Shown here: positions 11,969-23,814 of the stretch, piece by piece
Layout: each line of letters starts with the position of its first letter
Position numbering within the stretch: the first letter of the stretch is position 1
Origin: Phytoactinopolyspora mesophila
GTDB lineage: Bacteria; Actinomycetota; Actinomycetes; Jiangellales; Jiangellaceae
Assembly: GCF_010122465.1 (NCBI RefSeq)
Contig: NZ_WLZY01000004.1
Span: 310,001-374,000, forward strand
Length of the DNA stretch: 64,000 nucleotides
Direction: 5' to 3'
Position numbers and translations under genes: made by a program
Notes under the pieces: generated by a model
Told to the model about the DNA's origin: nothing
What the model saw: the letters and a program-made list of their open reading frames with translations, nothing else
The model's database searches: none

Positions 11969-12769
11969 TCATGGGAGGTTCGGGATAGCCGCGGCCAGGA
12001 GGGCACGCACACGATGCAGGTTCTCCTCGAACACCTGGAAGACCGTTTCCTGGGTGACCGGTTGTACGCCGGGATCGTCGTCGAGACCGGCGTCGTAGTC
12101 GGTGACGAGTGCGATCCCGGCGAAGGGAATCCCGGCTTCACCCGCGAGGGCCGCTTCCGGATACTGCGTCATGTTGATCACGTGCCAGCCGGCGGCGCGA
12201 TAAGCAGCGGACTCGGCACGGGTGGAGAACCGCGGACCATTGGTGACAACGACGGTGCCGCCGTCGTGCACCGTGACGCCGGAGGCTCGTGCGGCGTCCA
12301 GGAGCACCTCGCGCAAGCGTGGATCGTACGGGTCCGCGAAGGGAAGATGCTGAGGACCTTCGTCGAAGTGGTCGTAGAAGGTGTCGGCCCGACCCCGCGT
12401 GCGATCAACAAGCTGGTCCACGACGACGAATTCGCCGGGACCGATCTCTGAGCGCAGCGAACCCGCGGCGAACGGCGCCACCAACGCGCGGACGCCGAGT
12501 TGGCGCATCGCATCGACATTGGCGCGGTAGTTGACTCGATGTGGCGGGAATTGATGCCGCACACCGTGCCGGGGCAGGAAAGCCACCTTGATTGGGGAAC
12601 CGTTCGCCGGGCGGAACGTAGCGATGGTCACCGGGGCCGATGGCTGACCCCAGGCGGTGTCCAGGCTGACCGTTTCCAGATCCGCCGCCTGTTCCGACAC
12701 GAAGGTATAGAAACCGGATCCACCGAATACGCCGACGTCTGCGCTTTTCAGGTGAGGTTTGTTGTTCAT
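11969..12769 (-). CDS. mtnP: S-methyl-5'-thioadenosine phosphorylase
   Basis: Cleaves methylthioadenosine (or a related 5'-modified adenosine) to adenine and the ribose 1-phosphate. The 266-aa product is a typical MTAP/PNP: GVFGGSGFY near residue 13, PRHGxxHxxPPHxVNYRAN, GPRFSTRAE, and the substrate motif NMTQYPEAALA whose Met-Thr favours MTA. The end VTDYDAG is also typical. ATG 12769 has GGGGG 6 bases upstream. It heads a minus-strand set with two transferase genes. Confidence 0.9.
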   Translation of the reverse strand: MNNKPHLKSADVGVFGGSGFYTFVSEQAADLETVSLDTAWGQPSAPVTIATFRPANGSPIKVAFLPRHGVRHQFPPHRVNYRANVDAMRQLGVRALVAPFAAGSLRSEIGPGEFVVVDQLVDRTRGRADTFYDHFDEGPQHLPFADPYDPRLREVLLDAARASGVTVHDGGTVVVTNGPRFSTRAESAAYRAAGWHVINMTQYPEAALAGEAGIPFAGIALVTDYDAGLDDDPGVQPVTQETVFQVFEENLHRVRALLAAAIPNLP

Positions 12770-12836
12770 GTGGTTCCCCCGGGTGCGGTCGTGGGGTGCG
12801 GCCGGTGAGGCCGTGGGGTGAGCATGTCAGACGTAC

Positions 12837-13505
12837 TCATCGCGTCCGTGCCGCCTCGCGTGCCCGGATCAGATGCGCTCGCATGTCCATCACGGCGCGC
12901 ATTGTGCCCCGTACGGTGCCGGTGACCTTACTCCGGCCAACCCTGCGGCGGTATGGCACAGGCACTTCGGACACTCGCCAGCCGGCTTGACCGGCTCGTA
13001 ACACCATTTCCAGCGGCCAGCCGGAGCGGCGGTCGGTGATCCCGAGTTCCAGGAGCGGCTCTCGCGCAGCGGCTCGCATCGGGCCGATGTCGCTGATCTG
13101 GGCTCCGCAGTACCGGTTGACCTGCCTGGCAAGATACCGGTTGGCGAGCCGGCTGTGCATCGAGAGTGCGCCGTCGCCGGCTTGCCGGGCGCCCAGCACG
13201 AGATCGGCGGTGCCGGTGGACACCGGCTGCGTGACCGTGGGGAGGTCGGCCGGATCGAGCGATGCGTCGCAGTCCATGAAACACACGACGGGCGTGGTGG
13301 CGGCCTCCAGCCCGGCGTAGCATGCGGCCCCGAACCCGAGCCGCGGCTCGGCCACCACCGTGGCGCCGTGGTCGGCAGCGATATCCGCCGAGCCGTCGTC
13401 GGAGCCGTTGTCCACGACGATCGGCCGGTAGCCGGGTGGCATCCGCTCGAGCACCCACCCGATCGCCGCTCGCTCGTTCAGTACCGGCAAGATGACGTCG
13501 ATCAC
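12837..13505 (-). CDS. Family 2 glycosyltransferase
   Basis: A 222-aa GT-A fold transferase: VILPVLNE at the N-terminus, VVDNGSDDGS for nucleotide binding, and FMDCDAS carrying the DxD metal site. It lacks membrane helices. The pair formed with the next gene (a DUF2064 transferase) overlaps by four bases, so both are translated together. This pairing resembles the two transferases of radical-SAM-linked clusters (TIGR04282 and TIGR04283). The acceptor is unknown. Confidence 0.83.
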   Translation of the reverse strand: MIDVILPVLNERAAIGWVLERMPPGYRPIVVDNGSDDGSADIAADHGATVVAEPRLGFGAACYAGLEAATTPVVCFMDCDASLDPADLPTVTQPVSTGTADLVLGARQAGDGALSMHSRLANRYLARQVNRYCGAQISDIGPMRAAAREPLLELGITDRRSGWPLEMVLRAGQAGWRVSEVPVPYRRRVGRSKVTGTVRGTMRAVMDMRAHLIRAREAARTR

Positions 13506-14164
13506 GGGGCTGCCTCCGGTGCCGGGGCGGTCGAGGTGGGGGCCTGGCAGGCATCCAGCACACGCGCGGTGTTGGAGCCCGGGATGAGTTCGGCGATGGC
13601 CTGCGCGTCAGCCGCATCGTCGAGATCGCGCAACGGCGGCAGCTCGGCGACGGTGAGCCCGAGCGAGCGCAGCCGGGAACACTGCCGGCTACCGGTGTCA
13701 GATCGGCTCATCGGTACTCCGTGGAAGGCAAGTGGATGCGGCGTGCCGAAGGCGATCGCCCACCAGCCGCCGTCTTCAGCCATACCGAGTGCGGCGTCAG
13801 CGGGGCCGTCCACGACGGTGGCGAGCGAGGCATCCAGGAGGGCGGCGGTGATCTGCGGCGTATCCATACCGATTTGCAAGCCCGGGCCACCGGCATATTC
13901 CCAAGCGGCGGCCAAGCGCTCGTTGAGCGAGCCATCCACCTGCGTGACGACCTCAAAACCGGGCGGCAGCCAGGGGCCGGGCGGGCCGTCCAGCGCGACA
14001 ATGCGCCGTTCCGCGTGACACGCCGCCACCGCCGTCAGCGTGTCGGTCAGCGCGGCCTCGGCTATCGCGGCGGCCTGGTCCGGTGTGTAGGGAGGTGAAA
14101 GCCTGGTTTTCGCCTGACCGGCTACCGGCGATTTCGCCAGCAGGAGGATATGCGGCCGCTGCAT
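13502..14164 (-). CDS. DUF2064/TIGR04282-type nucleotidyl- or glycosyltransferase
   Basis: A 220-aa protein beginning LLLAKSPVAGQAKTRL, the start signature of the CofC-like DUF2064 family (TIGR04282, transferase associated with radical SAM gene sets). IGMDTPQI is the likely metal-binding segment. It is first in a minus-strand operon and its stop overlaps the GT2 start (ATGA). It is divergent from the membrane glycosyltransferase-like gene, with 102 bases for two promoters. The family is linked to arsenosugar-type clusters in some bacteria, but the arsenic enzymes are not present here. Confidence 0.8.
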   Translation of the reverse strand: MQRPHILLLAKSPVAGQAKTRLSPPYTPDQAAAIAEAALTDTLTAVAACHAERRIVALDGPPGPWLPPGFEVVTQVDGSLNERLAAAWEYAGGPGLQIGMDTPQITAALLDASLATVVDGPADAALGMAEDGGWWAIAFGTPHPLAFHGVPMSRSDTGSRQCSRLRSLGLTVAELPPLRDLDDAADAQAIAELIPGSNTARVLDACQAPTSTAPAPEAAP

Positions 14165-14266
14165 GCCTTAGACGCTAGAGGCAGCCCGCGGCCCGAATCA
14201 TTACGAACCGCGAAAGTCTTTGCTCGCACCGCGACGTGTGTGGTCCCGATCGGTCATCGTGAGTGG

Positions 14267-15703
14267 ATGAACGAGAGCGCCCGTCGGATCGAGGCGCCGG
14301 ATAGTGAGCGGACACACCAGCCGGACGGCTCCGGGTTCGGCGTCTGTTTCCGGCCCACGCGGCTGACGCTCCTTGTCCTGGTCGCCTGGGTGGTGCTCCT
14401 GGTGGGCGTCCGGCTGCTCGGGTTGCACGTCGTCGCCACCAGGGATGCGGATCTCAAACTCCGGGCGATCCCGTTGTACGGGGACTGGCAGTGGGGTATC
14501 AGCTGGTGGCTGCTGGCGCCCATCGTCGCCGGCTCGGTGTTCATTGCGGTCCTGCCGCCGTTGGTACAACGGTGGTCCTGGCGGGGAGTCCTGGCGGCCA
14601 CGGCCGCTGCGGGTGTGGTGTTCAGCCTGGCGCTGGCGCTGGCCGAGACGCATCCGACGGTATGGTCCGACATCCACCACACCTATGCCGGGCATATCGG
14701 CTTCATCGACGACGCCGGTGGCGTCGAGCCGTTTCTCCGCGAGTACGCCGAAAGCCAGCTGATTCCGGCCTATCCGGTGCACCTGCGCTCGCACCCGCCA
14801 GGTTTGCTGCTGTTCTTCTGGTGGGCCGCCGAGGCCGGCGTGTCCGGCGTGGTGTTCCAGAACGTGGTCGCCATGGCCGGCGCCGCGGCGATGATCGTGG
14901 CGGCCCTGGCCATCCTGCGTGATGTCGCGAGCGAGCGGACGGCCCGCGCCGCCGCGCCGTTCCTGGTGGTGGTGCCCGCGGCGGTCTGGCAGACCAACGC
15001 GGACATCATCTTCGCCGGCGCCGGGCTCGCCGCAGTCGCGTGCCTGATCCTGGCCACCGGCAGATCGGGTCGCGAGACGGTGGCGTTCACGGTGGCGGGT
15101 GGGCTGCTGGCCGGAATCGCGTTGATGTTGTCTTTTGGTATTGCCCTGCTGGCCATTCCGGTCGTGGTCATCGCGGTATGGCGAAAGCGTTGGTGGGTGC
15201 TGGTGGGTGGCGGCGCCCTGGCGGCTGTTGTGGTGGCGCTGCCGCTGGTGTGGGGCTACTGGTGGGTGGAGGGTCTGGGGGCGACCCGAGTGCGGTACTT
15301 CGACGGTGTCGCGTCCGCGCGCGGATACTGGTATTTCCTCATCGCGAATCCGGCGGTGTATGCGCTGGCACTCGGGCCGGCGATCGTGGTCGCCCTGTCC
15401 CGCTTGCGCGACCGGCGGGTATGGCTGGTTGTCGGCGCGGGTTTGGCCGTGGTGGCGATGGCGAATCTGTCTGGGCTCTCGTCCGGCGAAACCGAACGGA
15501 TCTGGCAGCCGTTCATGCCGCTCGTACTGCTGGCCGGGTGTGCCCTCGACCGGACCTCCGGTGCGTCCTGCGGATCGAGCGCTGGAGGCCCCGCCCTGCA
15601 GGACGCAGCGGACAGGCGGGCGCTGGGTGAGGTGCGCGGCTGGTTGACGCTGCAACTCGTGGTCACGGTGGCGCTCGTCGCAGCCTTACGAGTGCCATGG
15701 TGA
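14267..15703 (+). CDS. Polytopic membrane protein, GT39/GT87-like
   Basis: A 478-aa protein with about 10-12 hydrophobic helices. The first external loop after helix 3 contains THPTVWSDIHHTYAGHIGFID and LRSHPPGLLLF, reminiscent of lipid-linked sugar transferases (GT-C fold). I infer transfer of a sugar from a polyprenyl carrier, but no catalytic motif is decisive. ATG 14267 is chosen since upstream residues look random. Near the C-terminus a hairpin repeat (15561-15609) is read in frame as a Cys/Gly/Ser-rich stretch. Confidence 0.6.
   Translation: MNESARRIEAPDSERTHQPDGSGFGVCFRPTRLTLLVLVAWVVLLVGVRLLGLHVVATRDADLKLRAIPLYGDWQWGISWWLLAPIVAGSVFIAVLPPLVQRWSWRGVLAATAAAGVVFSLALALAETHPTVWSDIHHTYAGHIGFIDDAGGVEPFLREYAESQLIPAYPVHLRSHPPGLLLFFWWAAEAGVSGVVFQNVVAMAGAAAMIVAALAILRDVASERTARAAAPFLVVVPAAVWQTNADIIFAGAGLAAVACLILATGRSGRETVAFTVAGGLLAGIALMLSFGIALLAIPVVVIAVWRKRWWVLVGGGALAAVVVALPLVWGYWWVEGLGATRVRYFDGVASARGYWYFLIANPAVYALALGPAIVVALSRLRDRRVWLVVGAGLAVVAMANLSGLSSGETERIWQPFMPLVLLAGCALDRTSGASCGSSAGGPALQDAADRRALGEVRGWLTLQLVVTVALVAALRVPW
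15561..15609. repeat. GCGTCCTGCGG hairpin repeat lying inside a coding sequence
   Basis: Left arm GTGCGTCCTGCGGATCGAGC and right arm CCTGCAGGACGCAGC form a hairpin within the 3' part of the membrane-protein gene. The same sequence, with one change in GCGTCCTGCGGAxCGAGCGC, occurs as an intergenic hairpin at 43485-43534. Confidence 0.65.
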
Positions 15704-15734
15704 TTCTCCACTCACGGGAAATGCTGGAGGTGTG

Positions 15735-16769
15735 ATGCGGGTCTTGGTGACCGGAGGGGCCGGGTTCATCGGCAGCCAGGTGGTCGAGCAACTGGTGGAG
15801 CGGGGTGCCGACGTCGTCGTGCTCGACTCTTTGGCGGCTCATGACGACGCGCCGGATTACCTTCCGCCGGTTGTCGATCTGCGGATCGGCGACCTCATGG
15901 ACGAGGACACGGTTCGCGACGCCGTGCATGGCGTGGACGCGGTGTGCCACCAGGCGGCCCGGGTGGGCCTGGGCGTCGACTTCGACGATGTGACCAGCTA
16001 TGTGTCCGACAACGATCTCGGCACGGCGTCCCTGCTCAGAGCCCTGTGGCGGCGCTCGTTCACCGGACGGCTCGTCGTCGCGTCGTCGATGGTCGTGTAC
16101 GGCGAGGGCAGATATCGTTGTGCCGTCGACGGCGAGACGGCAGCCGCCCCGCGGCAAGCCGAAGACCTGCGCGCTGGCCGGTTCGACCCACCGTGCCCGC
16201 GCTGCGGAGCACCTCTCGAGTGGGTCCTGGTAGGCGAGAACGCTCCTCTCGACCCGCGCAACGTCTACGCGGCGACCAAGGTGCACACCGAGCAGTTGGC
16301 CTTCCTGTACGGGCGCGAGGCAGTCGCTTCGGTCTGTGCGCTGCGCTACCACAACGTTTACGGGCCACGGATGCCGAAAGACACCCCCTACGCGGGGGTG
16401 GCCAGCATCTTCCGCAGCGCGTACGAAGCCGGCCGGGCACCGAGGGTTTTCGAGGACGGCGGGCAGATGCGCGACTTCGTCCACGTCCGCGACGTCGCCC
16501 GGGCCAACGTGCTGGCGCTCGACTCCTCCTGGTCGGGCGCCTGCAACATCGCCAGCGGCCAGCCGCACAGCGTGCTCGACATGGCCACCGCACTCGCCGC
16601 CGGCTTCGGTGCAGCCGCGCCCGCACCGCAAGTGACCGGCGAGTTCCGGCTGGGCGACGTCCGCCATGTGGTTGCCTCTGCCGCGCTGGCCGGCGATGTC
16701 CTGGGCTTCCGCGCGGAGGTGGGTTTCGACGACGGGATGGCCGCCTTTGCGAAGGATCCGCTCCGATGA
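15735..16769 (+). CDS. NAD-dependent sugar epimerase/dehydratase
   Basis: Extended short-chain dehydrogenase (344 aa) acting on a nucleotide sugar. NAD-binding TGGAGFIG is at residues 7-14, and the catalytic YxxxK is NVYAATK. A PPCPRCGAP insert between these may bind zinc; similar inserts occur in actinobacterial enzymes annotated as dTDP-L-rhamnose 4-epimerase. ATG 15735 follows GGAGG; GTG 15732 is possible. It probably forms one transcription unit with the membrane gene upstream (31-base gap). Confidence 0.82.
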   Translation: MRVLVTGGAGFIGSQVVEQLVERGADVVVLDSLAAHDDAPDYLPPVVDLRIGDLMDEDTVRDAVHGVDAVCHQAARVGLGVDFDDVTSYVSDNDLGTASLLRALWRRSFTGRLVVASSMVVYGEGRYRCAVDGETAAAPRQAEDLRAGRFDPPCPRCGAPLEWVLVGENAPLDPRNVYAATKVHTEQLAFLYGREAVASVCALRYHNVYGPRMPKDTPYAGVASIFRSAYEAGRAPRVFEDGGQMRDFVHVRDVARANVLALDSSWSGACNIASGQPHSVLDMATALAAGFGAAAPAPQVTGEFRLGDVRHVVASAALAGDVLGFRAEVGFDDGMAAFAKDPLR

Positions 16770-16914
16770 GCGCGTCAGCAAGGACGGGCACACTTTCGCA
16801 GTTTGTAAGGATCGTCGAGCCGATGTCATGTTTCGATCAACTACGAGCCGGGAGGGTGCTCGACGCACCCGCCCCTCGAGACGATCCGGCACCGCGACGA
16901 AGCGAGACGTGATC

Positions 16915-17451
16915 ATGACGGCGGAGAAGGCGACGCAGGAAGCGCCCACGGGGCTGCGGGTCAACGGCTGGCTGCTCGCTGTCGTCCGGGTCGGCGTCGC
17001 CATGATGTGGATCGACAACACGTCGTGGAAACGGCCGCCGGATTTCGGCGAGGGTGATCCGCCGAGCATGCTCTACCGCTGGACGCTGATGGGCGTTGAG
17101 CATGAAGTGTTCGGACCGTACGCGTGGTTCCTCGAGAACATCGTGCTGCCGAACTTCACGGTCTTCGGGTGGCTGGTCCTGATCGTGGAGGCCTCGCTCG
17201 GGGCGTTCCTGCTGGTTGGCCTGCTGACCCGGGCATTCGCCGTGGTCGGCATGGTGCAAAGCGTCGCTATAGCGATGTCGACGCTCAATGCTCCGCACGA
17301 GTGGTATTGGGCATACCTGCTCATGTTCCTGGCACATCTGGCGCTGTTCGCCACCGCCGCTGGGCGCTATGTAGGCCTGGACGGTGTCCTGCGACCCATC
17401 TGGCTGCCTCGCGACAGCCGGCTTGCCCGTTTGCTGGAGAAGGTGTCATGA
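16915..17451 (+). CDS. DoxX-like membrane protein
   Basis: A 178-aa protein with four hydrophobic helices and a long first loop (NTSWKRPPDFG to ENIVLPNF). The topology and the charged WKRPP motif after helix 1 resemble the DoxX/DoxD family, which includes the thiosulfate:quinone oxidoreductase small subunit. ATG 16915 is selected because the upstream open frame lies in the epimerase gene. Its stop overlaps the next start (ATGA). A role in electron transfer from the flavin or radical enzymes downstream is a guess. Confidence 0.65.
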   Translation: MTAEKATQEAPTGLRVNGWLLAVVRVGVAMMWIDNTSWKRPPDFGEGDPPSMLYRWTLMGVEHEVFGPYAWFLENIVLPNFTVFGWLVLIVEASLGAFLLVGLLTRAFAVVGMVQSVAIAMSTLNAPHEWYWAYLLMFLAHLALFATAAGRYVGLDGVLRPIWLPRDSRLARLLEKVS

Positions 17452-17819
17452 CTGGTCAGGACACTCTGAACAGAGCCACGGCAGGCCTGGGTCTGGCGTC
17501 GATAGCCGGGCTGGTCTTCGTGATCGAGGCACTCGGTGACTTCCGGTTCATGCGGGTCAGCGGCGCGGCCATCGCGGTCGCGCTGGTGCTCGGCCTGCTG
17601 GCGTGCGTGGCGGGATGGCTCGCCCGGCCGGTGCTGGCCGTCGTCGCCGGAGTGGCGTTTCTCGCAGCCGCGTTGCTCCAGCTGATCTCGACGGCCACCG
17701 GAAACGACTGGCTGGGCGCCAGCCTCAGCACGATGTCGTTCTGGCTCGGCCTGGGTGTCGGCCTGCTCTTGGTCGGGCTGACGGCTCATTTCACCGACAC
17801 CATGATCGAGAGGGAGTAG
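17448..17819 (+). CDS. Small four-helix membrane protein
   Basis: A 123-aa protein that is almost entirely hydrophobic: four helices at about residues 14-30, 38-58, 61-82 and 92-114. No family recognised. It overlaps the DoxX-like gene by four bases and its TAG stop touches the ATG of the next gene, so it is in the middle of a tightly packed operon and probably works with the DoxX-like protein in the membrane. Confidence 0.7.
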   Translation: MTGQDTLNRATAGLGLASIAGLVFVIEALGDFRFMRVSGAAIAVALVLGLLACVAGWLARPVLAVVAGVAFLAAALLQLISTATGNDWLGASLSTMSFWLGLGVGLLLVGLTAHFTDTMIERE

Positions 17820-18971
17820 ATGGATCACACAGACCCGCCGCTGGAAGCGGCCCTTGTTCCGGTGCTGGCTGCCGCCCGTGCCGCCGCCGTCGACGTCGAC
17901 GCCGAAGGCCGGTTCCCGCAGGAGGCGGTTGCCGCGTTACGCGAATCCGGGCTGCTCGGGCTGACGCTCCCGACCGATGCCGGCGGCATGGGCCGAGGGC
18001 CGGAGGAGCTGGCGGACACCCTCAGCCGGATCGCCGCGGTCTGCGGTTCGACGGCCATGGTCTATCTCATGCACGTGAGTGCCGCCATGACAGTGGCCGC
18101 CGCGCCGCCGGCCGGCCAGCCCAAATTGCTCAGGCAGATGGCCGACGGAACCACGCTGGGCACGCTGGCGTTCTCGGAGCCTGGCTCGCGTTCGCATTTC
18201 TGGGCTCCGACATCGCAGGCAATCGCGGACGGCGACGGCACACGTCTGGCTGCCGAGAAGAGCTTCGTGACGTCGGCCGGACACGCCGACATCTACGTGG
18301 TCTCTACCATGACTCCGGCGGGCCAGGCAGACGGGGAGCCTGCTGTTGATCTCGTGGCCGTCCCGGCCGACCGCGATGGCGTATCCGTTTCCGCGCCGTG
18401 GCGAGGTCTGGGCCTGCGCGGGAATGCGTCATCACCGATGACGTTCGCGTTGGGCACCGCCGCCGGCGACCGGATCGGACCGGCCGGCGGCGGTTTTCAG
18501 CTCATGCTCGAAGCGGTGTTGCCGTGGTTCAATCTCGGCAACGCCGCGGTTTCGGTGGGGCTGGCCCAGGCAGCTGTCGACGCCGCGGTGAAGCATGCCT
18601 CTGGCGCCCGGCTAGAACACCTCGATGAATCGCTGGCCCACCTGCCGACCATCCGTGCGCAGCTGTCGAAGATGTCGATCGAGCTCGCGGCAACCCGGTC
18701 TTACCTCAACACCACGGCTCGCAGCCTCGCCGCTCCGGACGACACCACCACTCTGCACGTACTGGGCGTGAAGGCGATGGCCAACGACGCCGCCCTACGT
18801 ATCACCGATGCGGCCATGCGGGTCTGCGGCGGGGCGGCCTTCTCGAACCGCCTGCAGCTCGAACGGTTCTTTCGTGATGCCCGCGCCGGCCATGTCATGG
18901 CCCCCACCGCCGATGTCTTGTACGACCTCTACGGCAGGGCGATCACCGGCCTGCCGTTGTTCGGAAACTGA
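17820..18971 (+). CDS. Acyl-CoA dehydrogenase-fold flavoprotein lacking the usual catalytic Glu motif
   Basis: A 383-aa protein with the acyl-CoA dehydrogenase fold: N-terminal helices, LAFSEPGSRSHFWAP flavin-domain signature and C-terminal MRVCGGAAFSNRLQLERFFRDARAG. In the position where true dehydrogenases read EGTxxIQ it has HVMAPTADVLYD, so the canonical base seems absent. This resembles flavin monooxygenases of the DszC/SfnC group, which use reduced flavin and oxygen. Reaction unknown. Contiguous with neighbours on both sides (0 and 15 bases). Confidence 0.75.
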   Translation: MDHTDPPLEAALVPVLAAARAAAVDVDAEGRFPQEAVAALRESGLLGLTLPTDAGGMGRGPEELADTLSRIAAVCGSTAMVYLMHVSAAMTVAAAPPAGQPKLLRQMADGTTLGTLAFSEPGSRSHFWAPTSQAIADGDGTRLAAEKSFVTSAGHADIYVVSTMTPAGQADGEPAVDLVAVPADRDGVSVSAPWRGLGLRGNASSPMTFALGTAAGDRIGPAGGGFQLMLEAVLPWFNLGNAAVSVGLAQAAVDAAVKHASGARLEHLDESLAHLPTIRAQLSKMSIELAATRSYLNTTARSLAAPDDTTTLHVLGVKAMANDAALRITDAAMRVCGGAAFSNRLQLERFFRDARAGHVMAPTADVLYDLYGRAITGLPLFGN

Positions 18972-18986
18972 GAGGGACACACTCAT

Positions 18987-19802
18987 ATGGCCAAGCCGCT
19001 ACTCGTCGGAGCCGTCGCCTACACACCGAACGCGGTGCCCATCTGGGAGGGCATCCGCGACTACTTCACCGGCGCTCCGGTGGAGATGGACTTCGTGCTC
19101 TTCTCCAACTACGGGCGTCAGGTGGACGCGCTGATCGCGGGCACCATCGACATCGCCTGGAACACCAATCTGGCATGGGTGCGCACCGTGTTACAGACCG
19201 ACGGCGGCTGCCGGGCGCTTGCCATGCGCGACGTCGACCGGACGTTTCAGACGGTCTTCGTCACCCGAGCCGGAAGCGGCTTCGCGGACCTGACCGACCT
19301 GCGTGGCCGGACACTGGCGCTCGGGTCGCGCGACTCCGCTCAGGCAGCCATCCTTCCGGTGCACTACTTGCGTGCGGCTGGGTTGAGCGACGACGACGTG
19401 ACGATCGTGCGCATCGACTCCGACCTGGGCAAACACGGCGACACCGGCCGTAGCGAGCTGGACGCGATCCGGCTGCTCCTCGACGAGGAGGCCGACGCCG
19501 TCGCCCTCGGGATCAACACCTGGGAGGCCATCGGCAAGGACGAGCTGATGCCGGATGCCTTGACCGAGTTCTGGCGTTCGCCGGAGTACTCCCACTGCAA
19601 CTTCACCGCCCTCGACGCCTTGCCCCAATCGGTGTCCGAACCGTGGGTCGATCACCTGCTGGCCATGTCGTGGCAAGACCCGGAGCAGCGGCGGGTCATG
19701 GAGCTGGAAGGACTGCGTGAAGCGTGGGTGCTGCCGGACCTGGCCGGGTACACGTCGTTGTTCGAAGCGGTCCGCGATCAGGGGATCTCGGCGCGATGGT
19801 GA
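18987..19802 (+). CDS. Cytoplasmic phosphonate-binding-protein-like protein (PhnD type)
   Basis: A 271-aa protein with the PhnD/SsuA-like periplasmic-binding fold: LLVGAVAYTP start, LIAGTIDIAWNTNLAWV, LRGRTLALGSRDSAQAAILP and ADAVALGINTWEA, all typical ligand-site segments. It has no signal peptide or lipobox and there is no ABC permease or ATPase nearby, so it likely stays in the cytosol. Members of this fold can be enzymes (MqnA, MqnD, Thi5). ATG 18987 follows GAGAGGG. The stop overlaps the radical SAM start. Confidence 0.75.
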   Translation: MAKPLLVGAVAYTPNAVPIWEGIRDYFTGAPVEMDFVLFSNYGRQVDALIAGTIDIAWNTNLAWVRTVLQTDGGCRALAMRDVDRTFQTVFVTRAGSGFADLTDLRGRTLALGSRDSAQAAILPVHYLRAAGLSDDDVTIVRIDSDLGKHGDTGRSELDAIRLLLDEEADAVALGINTWEAIGKDELMPDALTEFWRSPEYSHCNFTALDALPQSVSEPWVDHLLAMSWQDPEQRRVMELEGLREAWVLPDLAGYTSLFEAVRDQGISARW

Positions 19803-20800
19803 GCCGTGTCGTGCTGGACCTGGTGGAGCGTGTCGGAGGCGCGGCCGCCGGAGACCAGGTCAACGTCGACGTCGCCCCGGAAGACAACGATGTCGTCGCC
19901 CGTTGGTGCACCCGCGCCGGACACCGGCTCGTGTCGATCCAGAACGGTGTCGCGGTCATCCGGCGGGGGCCGATACCCGATGAAGCCGGCGTGCTCGCCT
20001 CGATGCCTGCCGATCGCCGGCCAGGGGCGCGGCTGTGGATCTACACCAACTTCGACTGCAACCTGGCGTGCGACTACTGCTGCGCCCGTTCGTCGCCGCA
20101 AGCGCAACGGCGGGCGCTCGGCCCGGACACCATCCGAAAGCTCGTTGGCGAGGGGGTGCAGCACGGTGTCAGCGAGGTGTTCCTCACCGGCGGTGAACCG
20201 TTCATGCTGCTCGACCTCGACGAAATCGTCGGTGCCTGCGTCCAGCAGGCGCCGACGACTCTCCTCACCAACGGCATGCTGTTCCGCGGCCGGCGGCTGG
20301 ACATGCTGCGCTCGATGCCACGCGACGGCTTCGCGTTGCAGATCAGCCTCGACTCGGCCACCGCTGACCTGCATGACCTTCATCGCGGAACGGGAAGCTG
20401 GCGACGAGCGCTCGAGGGCGTCCGGACCGCAGTGGCCGAAGGGTTCCGGGTACGAATCGCCGCGACCGTAGCCACCGGTGAGGCAGGCGCCGACGAGTTC
20501 GCCGCCTTCCACGAGCTGCTCGACGGTCTCGGCATTCCCCGGGAGGACCAGGTGATCCGTCCGATCGCGCAGCGCGGCTTTGCCGACACGGGTGTGGCGC
20601 TGACCGTCGAATCACTCATCCCGGAGGTGACCGTCACCGCCGAAGGCGTCTACTGGCATCCGGTCGCCGCCGACCACGAGGACCAGCTCGTGACCCGTCA
20701 GCTGTTCCCGCTGGGGGATGCTATCGACGAGGTGCAACGACGGTTCGTTGCCTACCGGCAGGAGACCGAAGACGCGGCCAGGCAGTTCACCTGTGCGTAG
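19796..20800 (+). CDS. Radical SAM protein with TusA-like N-terminal domain
   Basis: A 334-aa protein. Residues 1-58 (GDQVNVDVAPEDN...WCTRAGHRLVSIQNGVAVIRRG) match the C-terminal half of the TusA/SirA sulfur-carrier fold but lack the usual CPxP cysteine. The radical SAM core starts at about 80 with the cluster motif Cys88-x3-Cys92-x2-Cys95, then FLTGGEPFM and LQISLDSA. No Cys-rich SPASM tail, only FTCA at the end. ATG 19796 and GTG 19799 both overlap the previous stop. Substrate unknown. Confidence 0.82.
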   Translation: MVSRVVLDLVERVGGAAAGDQVNVDVAPEDNDVVARWCTRAGHRLVSIQNGVAVIRRGPIPDEAGVLASMPADRRPGARLWIYTNFDCNLACDYCCARSSPQAQRRALGPDTIRKLVGEGVQHGVSEVFLTGGEPFMLLDLDEIVGACVQQAPTTLLTNGMLFRGRRLDMLRSMPRDGFALQISLDSATADLHDLHRGTGSWRRALEGVRTAVAEGFRVRIAATVATGEAGADEFAAFHELLDGLGIPREDQVIRPIAQRGFADTGVALTVESLIPEVTVTAEGVYWHPVAADHEDQLVTRQLFPLGDAIDEVQRRFVAYRQETEDAARQFTCA

Positions 20801-20809
20801 GCAGCGCCC

Positions 20810-20826
20810 CGTGATCAATGATCACG
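20810..20826. terminator. Short palindrome between convergent genes
   Basis: CGTGATCA-A-TGATCACG, an 8-bp inverted repeat in the 14-base gap between the radical SAM and SARP stops and covering the SARP stop. It could be a weak two-way terminator. Confidence 0.4.
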
Positions 20827-23814
20827 AGAGAGATTCAGCTTCTCCCGCACGACTCGTGATTCCAGCGCGTGTAATTCCTGGTAGATGTCGAGTGCGGCCT
20901 GCCAATGCTGGAGCGCCTTCTCGGTCTCACCCAGGGTGGAGTGGGCATCCCCGAGCCCATTGTGGCTGCGGGCGAGTTCGTAACGCAGCCCGAAGTCGGA
21001 GGCGACGGCCAGAGCGTCGTGATGGTAGCGGATCGCCTCGGCCGAAGCGCCTCGCGCCGCATGGGCCAGGCCCAGTCCGTTGAGCGCTTGGGCCCGGCTC
21101 TCGTTGTCGCGGGCGGAGGCGAGCGCTTCATGGTGGTGATGCTCGGCAGTTTCGTAGTCGCCGAGCAGCCGGTGCACCGCGCCGAGATGCTCGAGTGCCT
21201 GACCTTCCAGGCCGTGGATCTCGCTCGCGCGAGCCAGATTCAGCACCCGCTGTGCGTAGCGCAGCGCGTCGTCGTAGTTGCCGGCATCGCGGTGTAGACC
21301 TGCCAGGTTGAGCAGGATATAGGCCTGGCTCGGCGAACTCCCGAACTGTTCGTCGATCTCCACCGCTCGCTCGAGGCTTTGGAAAGCCTCCTCGTATCGG
21401 CCGAGCCGGTGGTGGATACGCCCCAGGTTGGTCAGCGGCTTGGTCTGTAGGAACTGGTTGCCCAGCTTGCCGTAGAGATCGATGGAGCGTTCCAGGTGCT
21501 GGATCGCCTCGGTGGTGGCGCCGATGTAATGACAGGTCGCGCCGAGATAGTTGAGCGTAGTGGCGAGCAATTGCGGGTCGCCGAGTTCTTCCTGCAACGC
21601 CAGCGCCTGCCGCAGGTGGCCGGCGGCGGTTTCGTACCGATCCATACGGTGGTTGGCCAATCCGAGAGCGCGTAACGCCAGTGCCTCGCCAACCCGGTCC
21701 GCATGCTCGCGCGCGGCCACGAGCGCCCGGGTGTGCAGCCGGTGCGCGTCGTCCACGTGCCACCCGACATCCAGGAATCGCCAGAGCACAGCGGACATGT
21801 CGATCGCGTACGTGGAAATGCCGTATTCGGTCGCCCGGTCCGCGGCCGACAACAGGTTCTGCCGCTCCGTTTCCAGCCATTGCAGAGCCGCCTGGTATGT
21901 GGACAACACAGGCCCGGTGACCGGGTGTTTCGTCACGGCGGGGCGCATCTCCACATGCTGCGGAGCGATGACATCCACCGCTGTCCAGGCGACTTGCAGG
22001 TAGTAGTCGAACAGCCTCGTGATTGCCGTCTGCCGGGACTCCTCGTCGTCGACCTCGCCGGCCAGTTCCGCGGCGTACGCCAGCAGGAGATCGTGCGGCT
22101 GGTAGCGACCCTCCCGAGTCTCGTCCACCAGACGGGCACGCACCAGCTCGTCCAGTAGCCGCCGGGTGGCGCGCAGGTCTTCGGTCCCCATCAGTGCCGT
22201 CAGAGCGTGCGCATCGAGGTCGTAGCCGGGATGCAGGCCGAACATGCGGAACAGGCGGGCACTTTCCGGGCTCAGCTCACGATAGGACCAGGAGAACACC
22301 GAACGCACCGATGTGTGCGCGTCACCGGCGTCGAACAAGTCGAGCTGAGCTTGCTCGTCATCGAGTTCGGCGATCAGATCCGCGACCCCGACGCCGCGCC
22401 GCTCGCCGATCCGTTCCGCGGCGATCCGCAGTGCCAACGGCAGCCGGGCGCAGCGCTCGACGAGTTGGGCGGTGGCCTCGGGATCGGCGTTGCGCCGCTC
22501 GTCGAGCAGTTCGTTGAGTAGCCTGCTGGCGTCGTCGCCGGTCATCCGGTCGAGATCGAGCCGGCGGGCGCCCTCCCGAACAGTCAGACCGGCCAGCGAA
22601 TCACGGCTGGTCACCAGGACGAAACAGGTCGGTGTGCCAGGCAGCAGGGGCCGGACCTGGTCGGCTGTCACGGCGTTGTCCAGCACGATCAAGATGCGCC
22701 GCTGGTCCGCCAGCGTACGGAAGCGGGCGGCGCGCTCGGTCAGGTCTTGTGGGACGGACGTGCCTTCGACGCCGAGATCGCGCAAGAAGCGGGCCAGCGC
22801 GTCGTTGGGAGCCATCGGTTCGTCCGGTCCGTAGCCGCGCAGGTCGATGTAGAGCTGGCCATCCGGGAACCGCTCGCTCATCTGATGTGCCCACCGCACG
22901 GCGAGTGTGGTCTTGCCGACGCCGGCGGTCCCGGTGATGGTGACTATGCGCGCCGGTTCGTCGAATTCTCCAGCCGCGATCCGATCCAGTTCGGCCAGTT
23001 CCGCGGCACGTCCGACGAAGGTTCCGGGACTGTGTGGAAGCTGCGCCGGTCGTTCAGTGGTCGGACTCCCCGTTGTACCCGGCCGGATCGACTCGCCGGT
23101 GAGGATCTGCTGCTCGATCTGTCGCAGCTCTGCGCCAGGTTCCAGGCCGAGTTCCTCGACCAGCACATGGCGCGCGCCGTGGTAGGCAGCCAGTGCGTCT
23201 GCCGGGCGCCCGCCCTGGTAGAGGGCGGTCATCAACAGTGCGTGGAAACGCTCGCGCAGCGGGTGCCGCCGGACGAGGTCAGACAGCTCACCGACGATTC
23301 CGGCGTTCCGGCCGCAGCGGAGCTCGGCCGCGTACAGTTCCTCCAGCGCTACCAGGCGGACGTCTGCGAGCCGCTCGATCTCCGCCGCCAGATCAGTGAC
23401 ATCCAAGCCCTGGTACGGCGTCCCGCGCCACAAGCTCAAGGCCTTGCGGGTCAGCTCGGCACAACGCGCGGGATCTTGGTCGGCTACGTCGCCGGCCTCG
23501 TCGATCAGGGTGCAGAATCGTTCCGAGTCCAGCTCTCCGGGCATGACCTCCAGGCAGTAGCCTGCTGAGCTGTACGAGAGCCGTTCCGGGCGGTCGAGCA
23601 TGCGGCGCAACTTGTAGATATGCAACTGGAGCTTCTGGTGCCCGCGAGGCTCTGGCTGCTCTCCCCACAAGGCGCCGAGCAAGGTGTCTACCGCGACCGG
23701 CTGGTTGGCGCGGGCCAGCAAGACGGCCAGGACGGTCTGGCGCAGTAACCCGGACACCGGCACTTCCTCGCCGTTGTCACGAAGCCGGATTGGTCCCAGA
23801 ACTTCGAACTGCAA
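20815..23814 (-). CDS. SARP/AfsR-type regulator with NB-ARC ATPase and TPR repeats
   Basis: A 999-aa transcription regulator. Residues 1-90 form an OmpR-like winged helix, 95-240 the bacterial transcriptional activation domain, 265-560 an NB-ARC ATPase with P-loop GTAGVGKTT (295-303) and LLIVLDN-type Walker B, and about 690-990 are repeated tetratricopeptide units (NLGRIHHRLGRYEEAFQ and similar). This is the AfsR architecture that activates secondary-metabolite genes in Streptomyces. It is convergent with the radical SAM operon, which makes it a candidate regulator of it. Confidence 0.9.
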   Translation of the reverse strand: MQFEVLGPIRLRDNGEEVPVSGLLRQTVLAVLLARANQPVAVDTLLGALWGEQPEPRGHQKLQLHIYKLRRMLDRPERLSYSSAGYCLEVMPGELDSERFCTLIDEAGDVADQDPARCAELTRKALSLWRGTPYQGLDVTDLAAEIERLADVRLVALEELYAAELRCGRNAGIVGELSDLVRRHPLRERFHALLMTALYQGGRPADALAAYHGARHVLVEELGLEPGAELRQIEQQILTGESIRPGTTGSPTTERPAQLPHSPGTFVGRAAELAELDRIAAGEFDEPARIVTITGTAGVGKTTLAVRWAHQMSERFPDGQLYIDLRGYGPDEPMAPNDALARFLRDLGVEGTSVPQDLTERAARFRTLADQRRILIVLDNAVTADQVRPLLPGTPTCFVLVTSRDSLAGLTVREGARRLDLDRMTGDDASRLLNELLDERRNADPEATAQLVERCARLPLALRIAAERIGERRGVGVADLIAELDDEQAQLDLFDAGDAHTSVRSVFSWSYRELSPESARLFRMFGLHPGYDLDAHALTALMGTEDLRATRRLLDELVRARLVDETREGRYQPHDLLLAYAAELAGEVDDEESRQTAITRLFDYYLQVAWTAVDVIAPQHVEMRPAVTKHPVTGPVLSTYQAALQWLETERQNLLSAADRATEYGISTYAIDMSAVLWRFLDVGWHVDDAHRLHTRALVAAREHADRVGEALALRALGLANHRMDRYETAAGHLRQALALQEELGDPQLLATTLNYLGATCHYIGATTEAIQHLERSIDLYGKLGNQFLQTKPLTNLGRIHHRLGRYEEAFQSLERAVEIDEQFGSSPSQAYILLNLAGLHRDAGNYDDALRYAQRVLNLARASEIHGLEGQALEHLGAVHRLLGDYETAEHHHHEALASARDNESRAQALNGLGLAHAARGASAEAIRYHHDALAVASDFGLRYELARSHNGLGDAHSTLGETEKALQHWQAALDIYQELHALESRVVREKLNLSRDH

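What the first reader, a model, noticed from the sequence alone, without database searches (positions are those of the whole stretch)
11969..23814. Uncharacterised radical SAM operon with a binding-protein-like enzyme, flavoprotein and glycosyl genes
From 15735 to 20800 seven plus-strand genes are packed with overlaps or short gaps: epimerase, DoxX-like, small membrane protein, acyl-CoA-dehydrogenase-fold protein, cytoplasmic PhnD-like protein, and radical SAM with a TusA-like domain, preceded by a GT-C-like membrane protein. The divergent set adds MTA phosphorylase and a GT2/DUF2064 pair of the kind linked to radical SAM clusters. A SARP regulator converges on it. Radical SAM plus a binding-protein fold plus a nucleoside phosphorylase parallels the futalosine menaquinone route, but none of these is an Mqn protein. 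I infer a new pathway making a glycosylated or sulfur-containing small molecule.
Basis: partly seen in the sequence, partly recalled or inferred. Interest (0 to 1): 0.82.

Follow-up and report, generated by a model that had tools for sequence, protein, structure and literature searches.

The report
Methylthio-sugar genes plus radical-SAM add-on module
The cluster joins two gene sets: one resembling the genes with which the tuberculosis bacterium makes an unusual sulphur-containing sugar for its surface, and an uncharacterised add-on set built around a radical enzyme; their repeated pairing in other bacteria suggests, but does not prove, that the add-on alters that sugar.

Summary
They form two modules. 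(1) MTAP, GT2, DUF2064, GT-C and epimerase (11969-16769) match a block found in Mycobacterium; a paper names its GT2 (MtxS, Rv0539) and GT-C (MtxT, Rv0541c; locus match partly recalled) as makers of the methylthioxylose (MTX) cap of lipoarabinomannan. (2) DoxD, small membrane protein, flavoprotein, PhnD-like protein and radical SAM (16906-20800); four of the five belong to NCBIfam families Rv1678-Rv1681, named but without a stated function. At least two module-1 genes lie within 10 kb of the PhnD-like gene in 19 of 80 loci, in varied orders; 39 of 46 other window ORFs never do. The SARP regulator is not conserved with it. In 12 of 13 loci from mostly other phyla, a ferritin/R2lox-like protein with a related TusA-like domain stands in place of the radical SAM. 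The PhnD-like protein keeps the oxyanion-binding fold, but a pocket Asp and Tyr have become invariant His and Cys; the flavoprotein lacks the usual glutamate. Best reading: module 2 tailors, or supplies a variant of, the MTX-type sugar. No reaction is shown. The futalosine parallel finds no support.

The parts
11969..12769 (-). MTAP-like phosphorylase (module 1)
   Evidence: NF005876 299.6 bits (cut-off 306) and TIGR01694 261.2 (cut-off 274.85): close to but under both cut-offs; homologue in the M. ostraviense block at 53% identity
12837..13505 (-). GT2, polyprenyl-phosphate-sugar-synthase-like, MtxS-like (module 1)
   Evidence: PF00535 65.4 bits; best NCBIfam hits NF041391 and TIGR04182, both far below cut-off; 47% to GT2 of the M. 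ostraviense block
13502..14164 (-). DUF2064, CofC-like nucleotidyltransferase-like (module 1)
   Evidence: PF09837 71.8 bits; TIGR04282 107.7, under cut-off 134; one match in G000
14150..15703 (+). GT-C-like integral membrane protein, MtxT-like (module 1); true start perhaps 14267
   Evidence: no Pfam or NCBIfam hit at E<=0.01; 29-35% to the membrane protein of the blocks in L134-L138
15732..16769 (+). NAD-dependent sugar epimerase with a CxxC insertion (module 1)
   Evidence: PF01370 150.4 bits; CxxC insertion in 15 of 19 relatives examined, M. ostraviense L134 included
16906..17451 (+). DoxD/DoxX-like membrane protein (module 2)
   Evidence: PF04173 41.4 bits; hit in 55 of 80 loci
17448..17819 (+). 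Rv1678-C-like small membrane protein (module 2); fused behind the DoxD part in some genera
   Evidence: NF049986 99.9 bits; the same family matches the C-terminal part of 275-317-aa DoxD-containing proteins in 4 of 4 tested (L061, L075, L081, L086)
17820..18971 (+). ACAD-fold flavoprotein without the acyl-CoA-dehydrogenase catalytic Glu (module 2)
   Evidence: NF049984 655.5 bits; YEGT of an ACAD aligns to MAPT; M360, A361, P362 each >=95% in 70 sequences
18987..19802 (+). PhnD-like binding-protein fold, no evident signal peptide by eye (module 2)
   Evidence: NF049985 493.9 bits; model pLDDT 94.0; Z 24.7 to PhnD 7s6g and 5lq5
19796..20800 (+). radical SAM protein with TusA-like N-domain and C-terminal Cys (module 2)
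   Evidence: NF049973 513 bits; CxxxCxxC invariant in 36 sequences; start; N-domain related to that of the diiron-type protein

Best explanation
Two cooperating modules. Module 1 (MTAP, DUF2064, epimerase, GT2, GT-C) makes a 5-deoxy-5-substituted pentofuranose donor as in the mycobacterial methylthioxylose pathway. Inferred steps: MTA is phosphorolysed to 5-methylthioribose-1-phosphate, activated by the CofC-like DUF2064 protein, epimerised ribo to xylo, loaded on polyprenyl phosphate by GT2, and transferred outside by GT-C. Module 2 (DoxD + Rv1678-type membrane protein, ACAD-fold flavoprotein, PhnD-like protein, radical SAM) tailors this sugar or supplies an altered version. I propose that the PhnD-like protein holds a phosphorylated intermediate, that the radical SAM (an R2lox-like diiron protein in other phyla) docks through its TusA-like domain and performs one hard C-H step, and that the flavoprotein makes or oxidises the substrate. 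Shown: gene content, conserved linkage, a related N-domain in the two catalysts, remodelled pocket, lost catalytic Glu. Inferred: every reaction, the substrate, docking, and the order of steps.
For: PMC8780516 states that MtxT (Rv0541c) transfers MTX to LAM caps and names MtxS (Rv0539) for MTX-P-C50 (passages). At least two module-1 genes lie within 10 kb of the PhnD-like gene in 19 of 80 loci, at least three in 14, in different orders; window control. DUF2064 is in 46 of 48 genomes with module 2 against 63 of 148 in the class. In the family all 5 genomes with the PhnD-like gene have the DUF2064 homologue, which is in 19 of 22 overall. A sister radical SAM sits beside the same DoxD in L126 with four of the five module-1 genes and no PhnD/ACAD hit, on a contig of limited length. 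N-domains of radical SAM and diiron-type protein: HHalign 91% and 75%, 51-88% for other cuts of the domain, 48 control comparisons at most 1.2%. PhnD fold with ligand-site changes.
Against: The core of module 2 (PhnD-like, ACAD, TusA-domain protein) occurs apart from module 1 elsewhere: DUF2064 is in only 3 of the 13 genomes of the loci without radical SAM, so it cannot depend on methylthioxylose everywhere. Module 1 is common without module 2: 14 of 17 family genomes lacking the PhnD-like gene have DUF2064, and all five module-1 genes are present in each of the five such stretches examined (L165-L168, L170). So module 2 is not needed for the basic sugar. 61 of 80 loci have fewer than two module-1 genes within 10 kb, some because contigs are short. 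Two of 48 genomes with module 2 lack DUF2064 (G436, G443). GT-C similarity is low (29-35%). MTAP, GT2 and DUF2064 fall below the specific NCBIfam cut-offs. The co-occurrence counts are not corrected for kinship; at least nine genomes of one genus (g3) in the class sample have DUF2064.
Confidence: 0.42

Rival explanations
1. The radical SAM adds its 5'-deoxyadenosyl radical to a substrate supplied by the PhnD-like protein and flavoprotein, giving a 5'-substituted adenosine. The MTAP-like phosphorylase removes adenine and the glyco genes use the new sugar, as in arsenosugar and hopanoid side-chain logic (HpnH/HpnG, ArsS; recalled).
For: HpnH 60.7 bits for the radical SAM and HpnG 25.7 for MTAP, both far below cut-off. 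The type-B radical SAM loci L121/L122 carry MTAP-like, DUF2064 and GT2 genes; in L122 DUF2064 passes TIGR04282 and GT2 passes TIGR04283.
Against: MTAP lies within 10 kb in only 7 of 80 loci. The other-phyla clusters carry a ferritin/R2lox-like protein instead, which would not be expected to make a 5'-deoxyadenosyl radical, so adenosyl transfer would not be the common reaction.
Confidence: 0.2
2. Module 2 is an independent small-molecule or detoxification pathway; its linkage to module 1 reflects shared envelope regulation or hitch-hiking.
For: PhnD-like + ACAD + TusA-diiron genes stand together without module-1 hits in the Arcobacter, Paenibacillus/Cohnella, Brachyspira and Acidobacteria loci, and DUF2064 is in 3 of 13 of those genomes. 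In M. ostraviense and G150 module 1 lies about 15 and 12 kb from module 2, not inside it.
Against: Linkage with rearranged order in many actinobacterial lineages and rarity of linkage for other window genes.
Confidence: 0.25
3. Sulfur or oxyanion assimilation: the PhnD-like protein binds an inorganic or simple organic oxyanion, and DoxD, TusA-like and SfnB/DszC-like parts move its sulfur.
For: TIGR04553 'selenate' SBP 84.3 bits, SfnB 94.1, NCBIfam DoxD 28.5, all below cut-off; Pfam DoxD 41.4 is above.
Against: In the diiron-type proteins the TusA match starts at profile position 14-15, and the radical SAM model has no strand before the first helix, where the TusA cysteine would lie (recalled); pocket Asp/Tyr changed to His/Cys. 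An ABC-ATPase family occurs in 9 of 80 loci but 3.3-8.9 kb away from the PhnD-like gene.
Confidence: 0.1

Closest known systems
Mycobacterial methylthioxylose (MTX) block, Rv0539 MtxS / Rv0541c MtxT (Angala 2017, not held; seen through PMC8780516 and PMC8081860)
   Same: GT2 + GT-C + DUF2064 + epimerase with CxxC + MTAP in one block in Mycobacterium genomes; that this block is the Rv0535-Rv0541c block is recalled
   Different: Outside mycobacteria here; next to module 2; divergent sequences (29-54% identity to the L134/L135/L137 genes); acceptor unknown
NCBIfam Rv1678, Rv1679, Rv1680, Rv1681 families (M. tuberculosis)
   Same: Four genes pass the curated cut-offs
   Different: DoxD and Rv1678-type parts are separate genes here and one protein in L086 (Mycobacterium), L075, L081, L061; adjacent to module 1 here
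PhnD/PtxB/AioX/ArrX oxyanion-binding proteins
   Same: Fold, Z 21-24.7 over about 250 residues; ligand Tyr46 of Pm_PhnD aligns to Tyr42
   Different: No evident signal peptide by eye; STS triad aligns to SAQ, Asp205 to His203, capping Tyr206 to Cys204
Arsenosugar set (ArsS, TIGR04282, TIGR04283)
   Same: Radical SAM + DUF2064 + GT2 + nucleoside phosphorylase logic
   Different: DUF2064 107.7 (cut-off 134) and GT2 40.3 (cut-off 182) fail the cut-offs

Membership tests
Rv1678-Rv1681 cassette (NCBIfam) | Scores above curated cut-offs of NF049986, NF049984, NF049985, NF049973 | tested here: met
   99.9/50, 655.5/600, 493.9/400, 513/380
Methylthioxylose pathway | Five-gene block as in Mycobacterium | tested here: met
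   Same five homologues in one block in L134 (M. ostraviense), L135 (M. gastri), L137 (unnamed G150); CxxC epimerase in L134. Identification of the block with Rv0535-Rv0541c is partly recalled
Methylthioxylose pathway | Makes polyprenyl-phosphate MTX and transfers it | not testable with these tools
   Needs biochemistry or glycan analysis
Arsenosugar glycosyltransferases | TIGR04282 / TIGR04283 cut-offs | tested here: not met
   107.7 vs 134; 40.3 vs 182
Acyl-CoA dehydrogenase | Catalytic Glu in the C-terminal YEGT segment (recalled role) | tested here: not met
   MAPT instead; A361 >=95% of 70. Some ACADs place the base elsewhere; not examined
Radical SAM | CxxxCxxC and GGE | tested here: met
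   C112, C116, C119, G156 G157 E158 invariant in 36; PF04055 79.2 bits
PhnD-type ABC binding protein | Export signal and ABC partners | tested here: inconclusive
   N-terminus MAKPLLVGAVAYTPN shows no signal-like stretch by eye, no predictor was run; one ABC-ATPase family is in 9 of 80 loci, 3.3-8.9 kb away
TusA | Pfam TusA match | tested here: inconclusive
   Diiron-type proteins: over the cut-off in 4 of 9 tested, below it in L110, no match in 4; window radical SAM none at E<=0.01, linked only through HHalign
R2lox / diiron oxidase (for the partner in other phyla) | Match to a curated family | tested here: inconclusive
   NF006200 43.9, 35.0, 18.8 bits, all below cut-off 194; Pfam AurF and DUF455 below cut-off; profile search finds R2lox structures at E 6e-9
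Futalosine (Mqn) enzymes | Match of the PhnD-like protein to an Mqn family | tested here: not met
   None among its 6 NCBIfam matches at E<=0.01

The most novel reading that the evidence does not exclude
A radical SAM enzyme and an R2lox-like diiron oxidase are interchangeable catalysts for one C-H step. Both are recruited by the same TusA-like docking domain to a cytosolic PhnD-fold protein whose oxyanion pocket has gained invariant His and Cys and which works as a substrate carrier or enzyme. In Actinobacteria this unit was attached to methylthioxylose biosynthesis and makes a new modified envelope sugar, M. tuberculosis (Rv1678-Rv1681) included.
Probability: 0.22. Interest if true: 0.86.

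Novelty: new variant of a known kind. Interest (0 to 1): 0.62.

Why it matters
It gives four M. tuberculosis protein families without a stated function a testable pathway context; it suggests that the methylthioxylose-type sugar block is not special to mycobacteria (its DUF2064 homologue is in 19 of 22 genomes of this family, and all five genes in each of five stretches examined); and it shows a radical SAM/diiron-type exchange that keeps a related accessory domain, a pattern often read as two solutions to one reaction. MTX is a feature of lipoarabinomannan and a target of tuberculosis immunoassays (PMC6258851, title and start of abstract in a search listing).

Tried and rejected
Futalosine-like route: no Mqn match for the PhnD-like protein. 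Arsenosugar membership: GT cut-offs missed. SARP as part of the system: 0 loci, one weak hit (L072). An intended arsenite-methyltransferase test failed because the recalled accession TIGR04345 is an OvoA domain; the arsenic idea was therefore not tested by that route. Families absent from the structure lists are not used as evidence.

Literature: no held paper has two or more of Rv1678, Rv1679, Rv1680, Rv1681. Of 326 papers with at least one of Rv1680, Rv1681, Rv1678, fadE16, moeX, 40 were listed: tuberculosis biomarker, vaccine, polymorphism or metabolism papers and unrelated 'moex-' words (listing only); one search listed a hypoxia proteomics paper and a glycoprotein paper naming Rv1679. For radical SAM with methylthioxylose terms, 11 papers matched two of four terms and none of the 10 listed contained 'radical SAM'. 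These cover only the open library. PMC8780516, PMC10675199, PMC10503756, PMC8081860, PMC3229680 and PMC5700983 were seen as passages; PMC6258851 as a listing. Angala 2017 is not held; its content is known here through PMC8780516 and PMC8081860. The numbers Rv0535, Rv0536 and Rv0540 for MTAP, epimerase and DUF2064, the roles of HpnH/HpnG/ArsS and the MTA route are recalled.
Full report
Observation. ORF lists and family scans confirm every gene in the finding. The window is G000:C4:310001-374000 of a 6.5 Mb genome. Four genes pass curated NCBIfam cut-offs: Rv1678-C membrane protein (99.9, cut-off 50), Rv1679/FadE16 (655.5/600), Rv1680 SBP-like (493.9/400), Rv1681 radical SAM (513/380). So the cassette is the set named after M. 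tuberculosis Rv1678-Rv1681; the NCBIfam names state no reaction beyond 'acyl-CoA dehydrogenase' and 'radical SAM protein'. The radical SAM start at 19724 is doubtful: the ATG at 19796 and GTG at 19799 overlap the end of the PhnD-like gene, and the family profile starts at residue 29.

Distribution. Rv1681-type proteins over cut-off occur in 3 of 396 genomes of the phylum, the own genome included. A scan of genome contigs with the PhnD-like protein found 154 relatives, of which the best 80 were kept (L039-L118). In these 80 loci an ACAD hit is found in 73, a radical SAM hit in 65, a DoxD hit in 55. The 15 loci without radical SAM are L080 and L082 (short contigs that end soon after the PhnD-like gene) and 13 loci from Arcobacter/Aliarcobacter, Cohnella/Paenibacillus, Brachyspira, Acidobacteria, Chloroflexi, Planctomycetia and one Solirubrobacteraceae genome. 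In the window's family the PhnD-like gene is in 5 of 22 genomes.

Module 1. MTAP, GT2, DUF2064, GT-C and epimerase recur near module 2 in changed orders: at least two of the five in 19 of 80 loci, at least three in 14, all five in L039, L042, L089, L097, L100 and L115. Control with all 56 ORFs picked in the window (counts are actinobacterial loci without Phytoactinopolyspora): GT2 in 17 loci, DUF2064 16, epimerase 13, MTAP 6, GT-C 3 at the strict cut; of 46 ORFs outside the cluster set (SARP included) 39 gave none, five gave 1-2, an ABC-ATPase-like ORF gave 7, and an ACAD paralogue gave 29; of that paralogue's 33 hits 32 fall on the ACAD gene. In that ORF picking the Rv1678-type ORF was displaced by an antisense ORF, so it has no count there. 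DUF2064 is in 46 of 48 genomes with module 2, in 63 of 148 genomes of the class (own genome included) and in 3 of the 13 genomes of the loci without radical SAM just named. These samples are not corrected for kinship, and at least nine genomes of one genus (g3) of the class sample have DUF2064.

Identity of module 1. In M. ostraviense the block ends about 15 kb, and in G150 about 12 kb, from the radical SAM gene (from coordinates). [quoted passage not shown] That the Mycobacterium block found here is the Rv0535-Rv0541c block is recalled, not looked up. The epimerase carries a CxxC insertion in 15 of 19 relatives examined, M. ostraviense included; the Rhodococcus one lacks it. In five relatives of the family without the PhnD-like gene all five module-1 genes are present together (L165-L168, L170); in L167 a histidine kinase and a response regulator stand between GT-C and DUF2064. 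No such pair lies between these genes in the window.

Module 2, radical SAM. The CxxxCxxC motif and GGE are invariant in 36 sequences; a C-terminal Cys (C357) is conserved in at least 90% of them. Sister proteins were seen among phylum genomes: type B with a metallophosphoesterase domain (Metallophos_2 over cut-off in 5 of 5 tested: L119, L120, L121, L123, L124), and type C (L125-L128, L130, L131) without the N-domain or the terminal Cys, beside DoxD in several and, in L126, with an AhpD/CMD-like protein (34.8, cut-off 23) and four of the five module-1 genes. In type-B locus L122 DUF2064 (162.7/134) and GT2 (184.9/182) pass the arsenosugar family cut-offs.

A possible swap of catalysts. Of the 13 loci named above, 12 carry, beside the PhnD-like gene, a protein of about 420 aa, broken in L112 and split in L113; the 13th (L105) starts at the contig end. 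Its N-domain passes the Pfam TusA cut-off in 4 of 9 proteins tested (L108, L109, L114, L116), falls below it in L110 and gives no match in L106, L107, L111, L118; the family profile finds TusA structures at E 5e-5 and R2lox (6e-9) and VlmB-like (8.5e-7) structures. No curated family is passed by the C-domain, but two DExRH motifs are invariant in 10 sequences. HHalign joins the N-domain to that of the radical SAM at 91% and 75% (E 1e-6 and 2.5e-5), 51-88% with other cuts; 48 comparisons with other stretches of radical SAM, ACAD, PhnD-like and DoxD gave at most 1.2%. A full-length copy is found in 10 of the 13 genomes, pieces in two (G399, G409), none in G404; and in 1 of 48 radical-SAM genomes (G425), four others of the 48 having weak partial hits. 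None of the 13 has an Rv1681-type radical SAM over cut-off (the best, G402, scores 265 bits without the N-domain).

Module 2, PhnD-like protein. The model is confident (pLDDT 94.0). Nearest solved folds: PhnD of Synechococcus and Prochlorococcus (Z 24.7), ArrX, PtxB, HtxB, AioX. Forty residues are invariant in 42 sequences from several phyla, among them Y42, S117, H203 and C204. Pm_PhnD contacts phosphite through Y46, S126, T127, S128, H158, D205, with Y206 as cap (PMC5700983 passages). In the profile alignment these align to Y42, S117, A118, Q119, a loop of uncertain alignment, H203 and C204. Loss of the capping Tyr, which that paper describes as a steric barrier, would fit a bulkier ligand such as a phosphate ester; this is inference.

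Module 2, flavoprotein and membrane parts. The acyl-CoA-dehydrogenase YEGT segment is MAPT, conserved in at least 95% of 70 sequences. DoxD and the Rv1678-type part are one protein in 4 of 4 longer DoxD proteins tested. An MFS transporter (74-86% identical over the main stretches) occurs in six of 80 loci at E<=1e-15; five of these six lack an ACAD hit; looser clustering added a seventh locus, L097, which has ACAD. Of the five genomes, two have no ACAD-family match at 1e-30, two only paralogue-level scores, one a 390-bit copy elsewhere. A 48% identical transporter precedes the type-B radical SAM in L121. This hints that the flavoprotein makes something that can otherwise be imported.

Interpretation. 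Conserved linkage makes one functional context likely; the published function of the MtxS/MtxT genes makes a 5-substituted pentofuranose the best guess for it. What module 2 does to that sugar is not shown. The existence of its core without module 1 in other phyla is the main result against a purely methylthioxylose role, and I keep an independent pathway at 0.25 and an adenosyl-transfer route at 0.2.

Noticed in passing
L060, L073, L082, L096, L115 (no ACAD hit) and L048: An AAHS-like MFS transporter is present in these six of 80 loci; five lack an ACAD hit, only L048 has both.
   Followed up: partly
L119-L124 (type B) and L125-L128, L130, L131 (type C): Two sister radical SAM types with other partners: metallophosphoesterase fusion near FAD oxidoreductases; AhpD-like protein and DoxD in some type-C loci.
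   Followed up: partly
L165-L168, L170 (relatives without the PhnD-like gene): All five module-1 genes stand together without module 2; in L167 a two-component system lies between GT-C and DUF2064, not seen in the window.
   Followed up: partly
   Followed up: partly
L146, L147 (G403): Extra relatives of the diiron-type protein that match only from about position 88, without the TusA-like domain.
   Followed up: no
window 20815-23814: SARP/BTAD regulator with NB-ARC and TPR, convergent on the cluster but not conserved with it.
   Followed up: yes
L118:7179-8714: A protein that by eye resembles a selenocysteine elongation factor lies upstream of the ACAD/PhnD/diiron genes; not tested.
   Followed up: no
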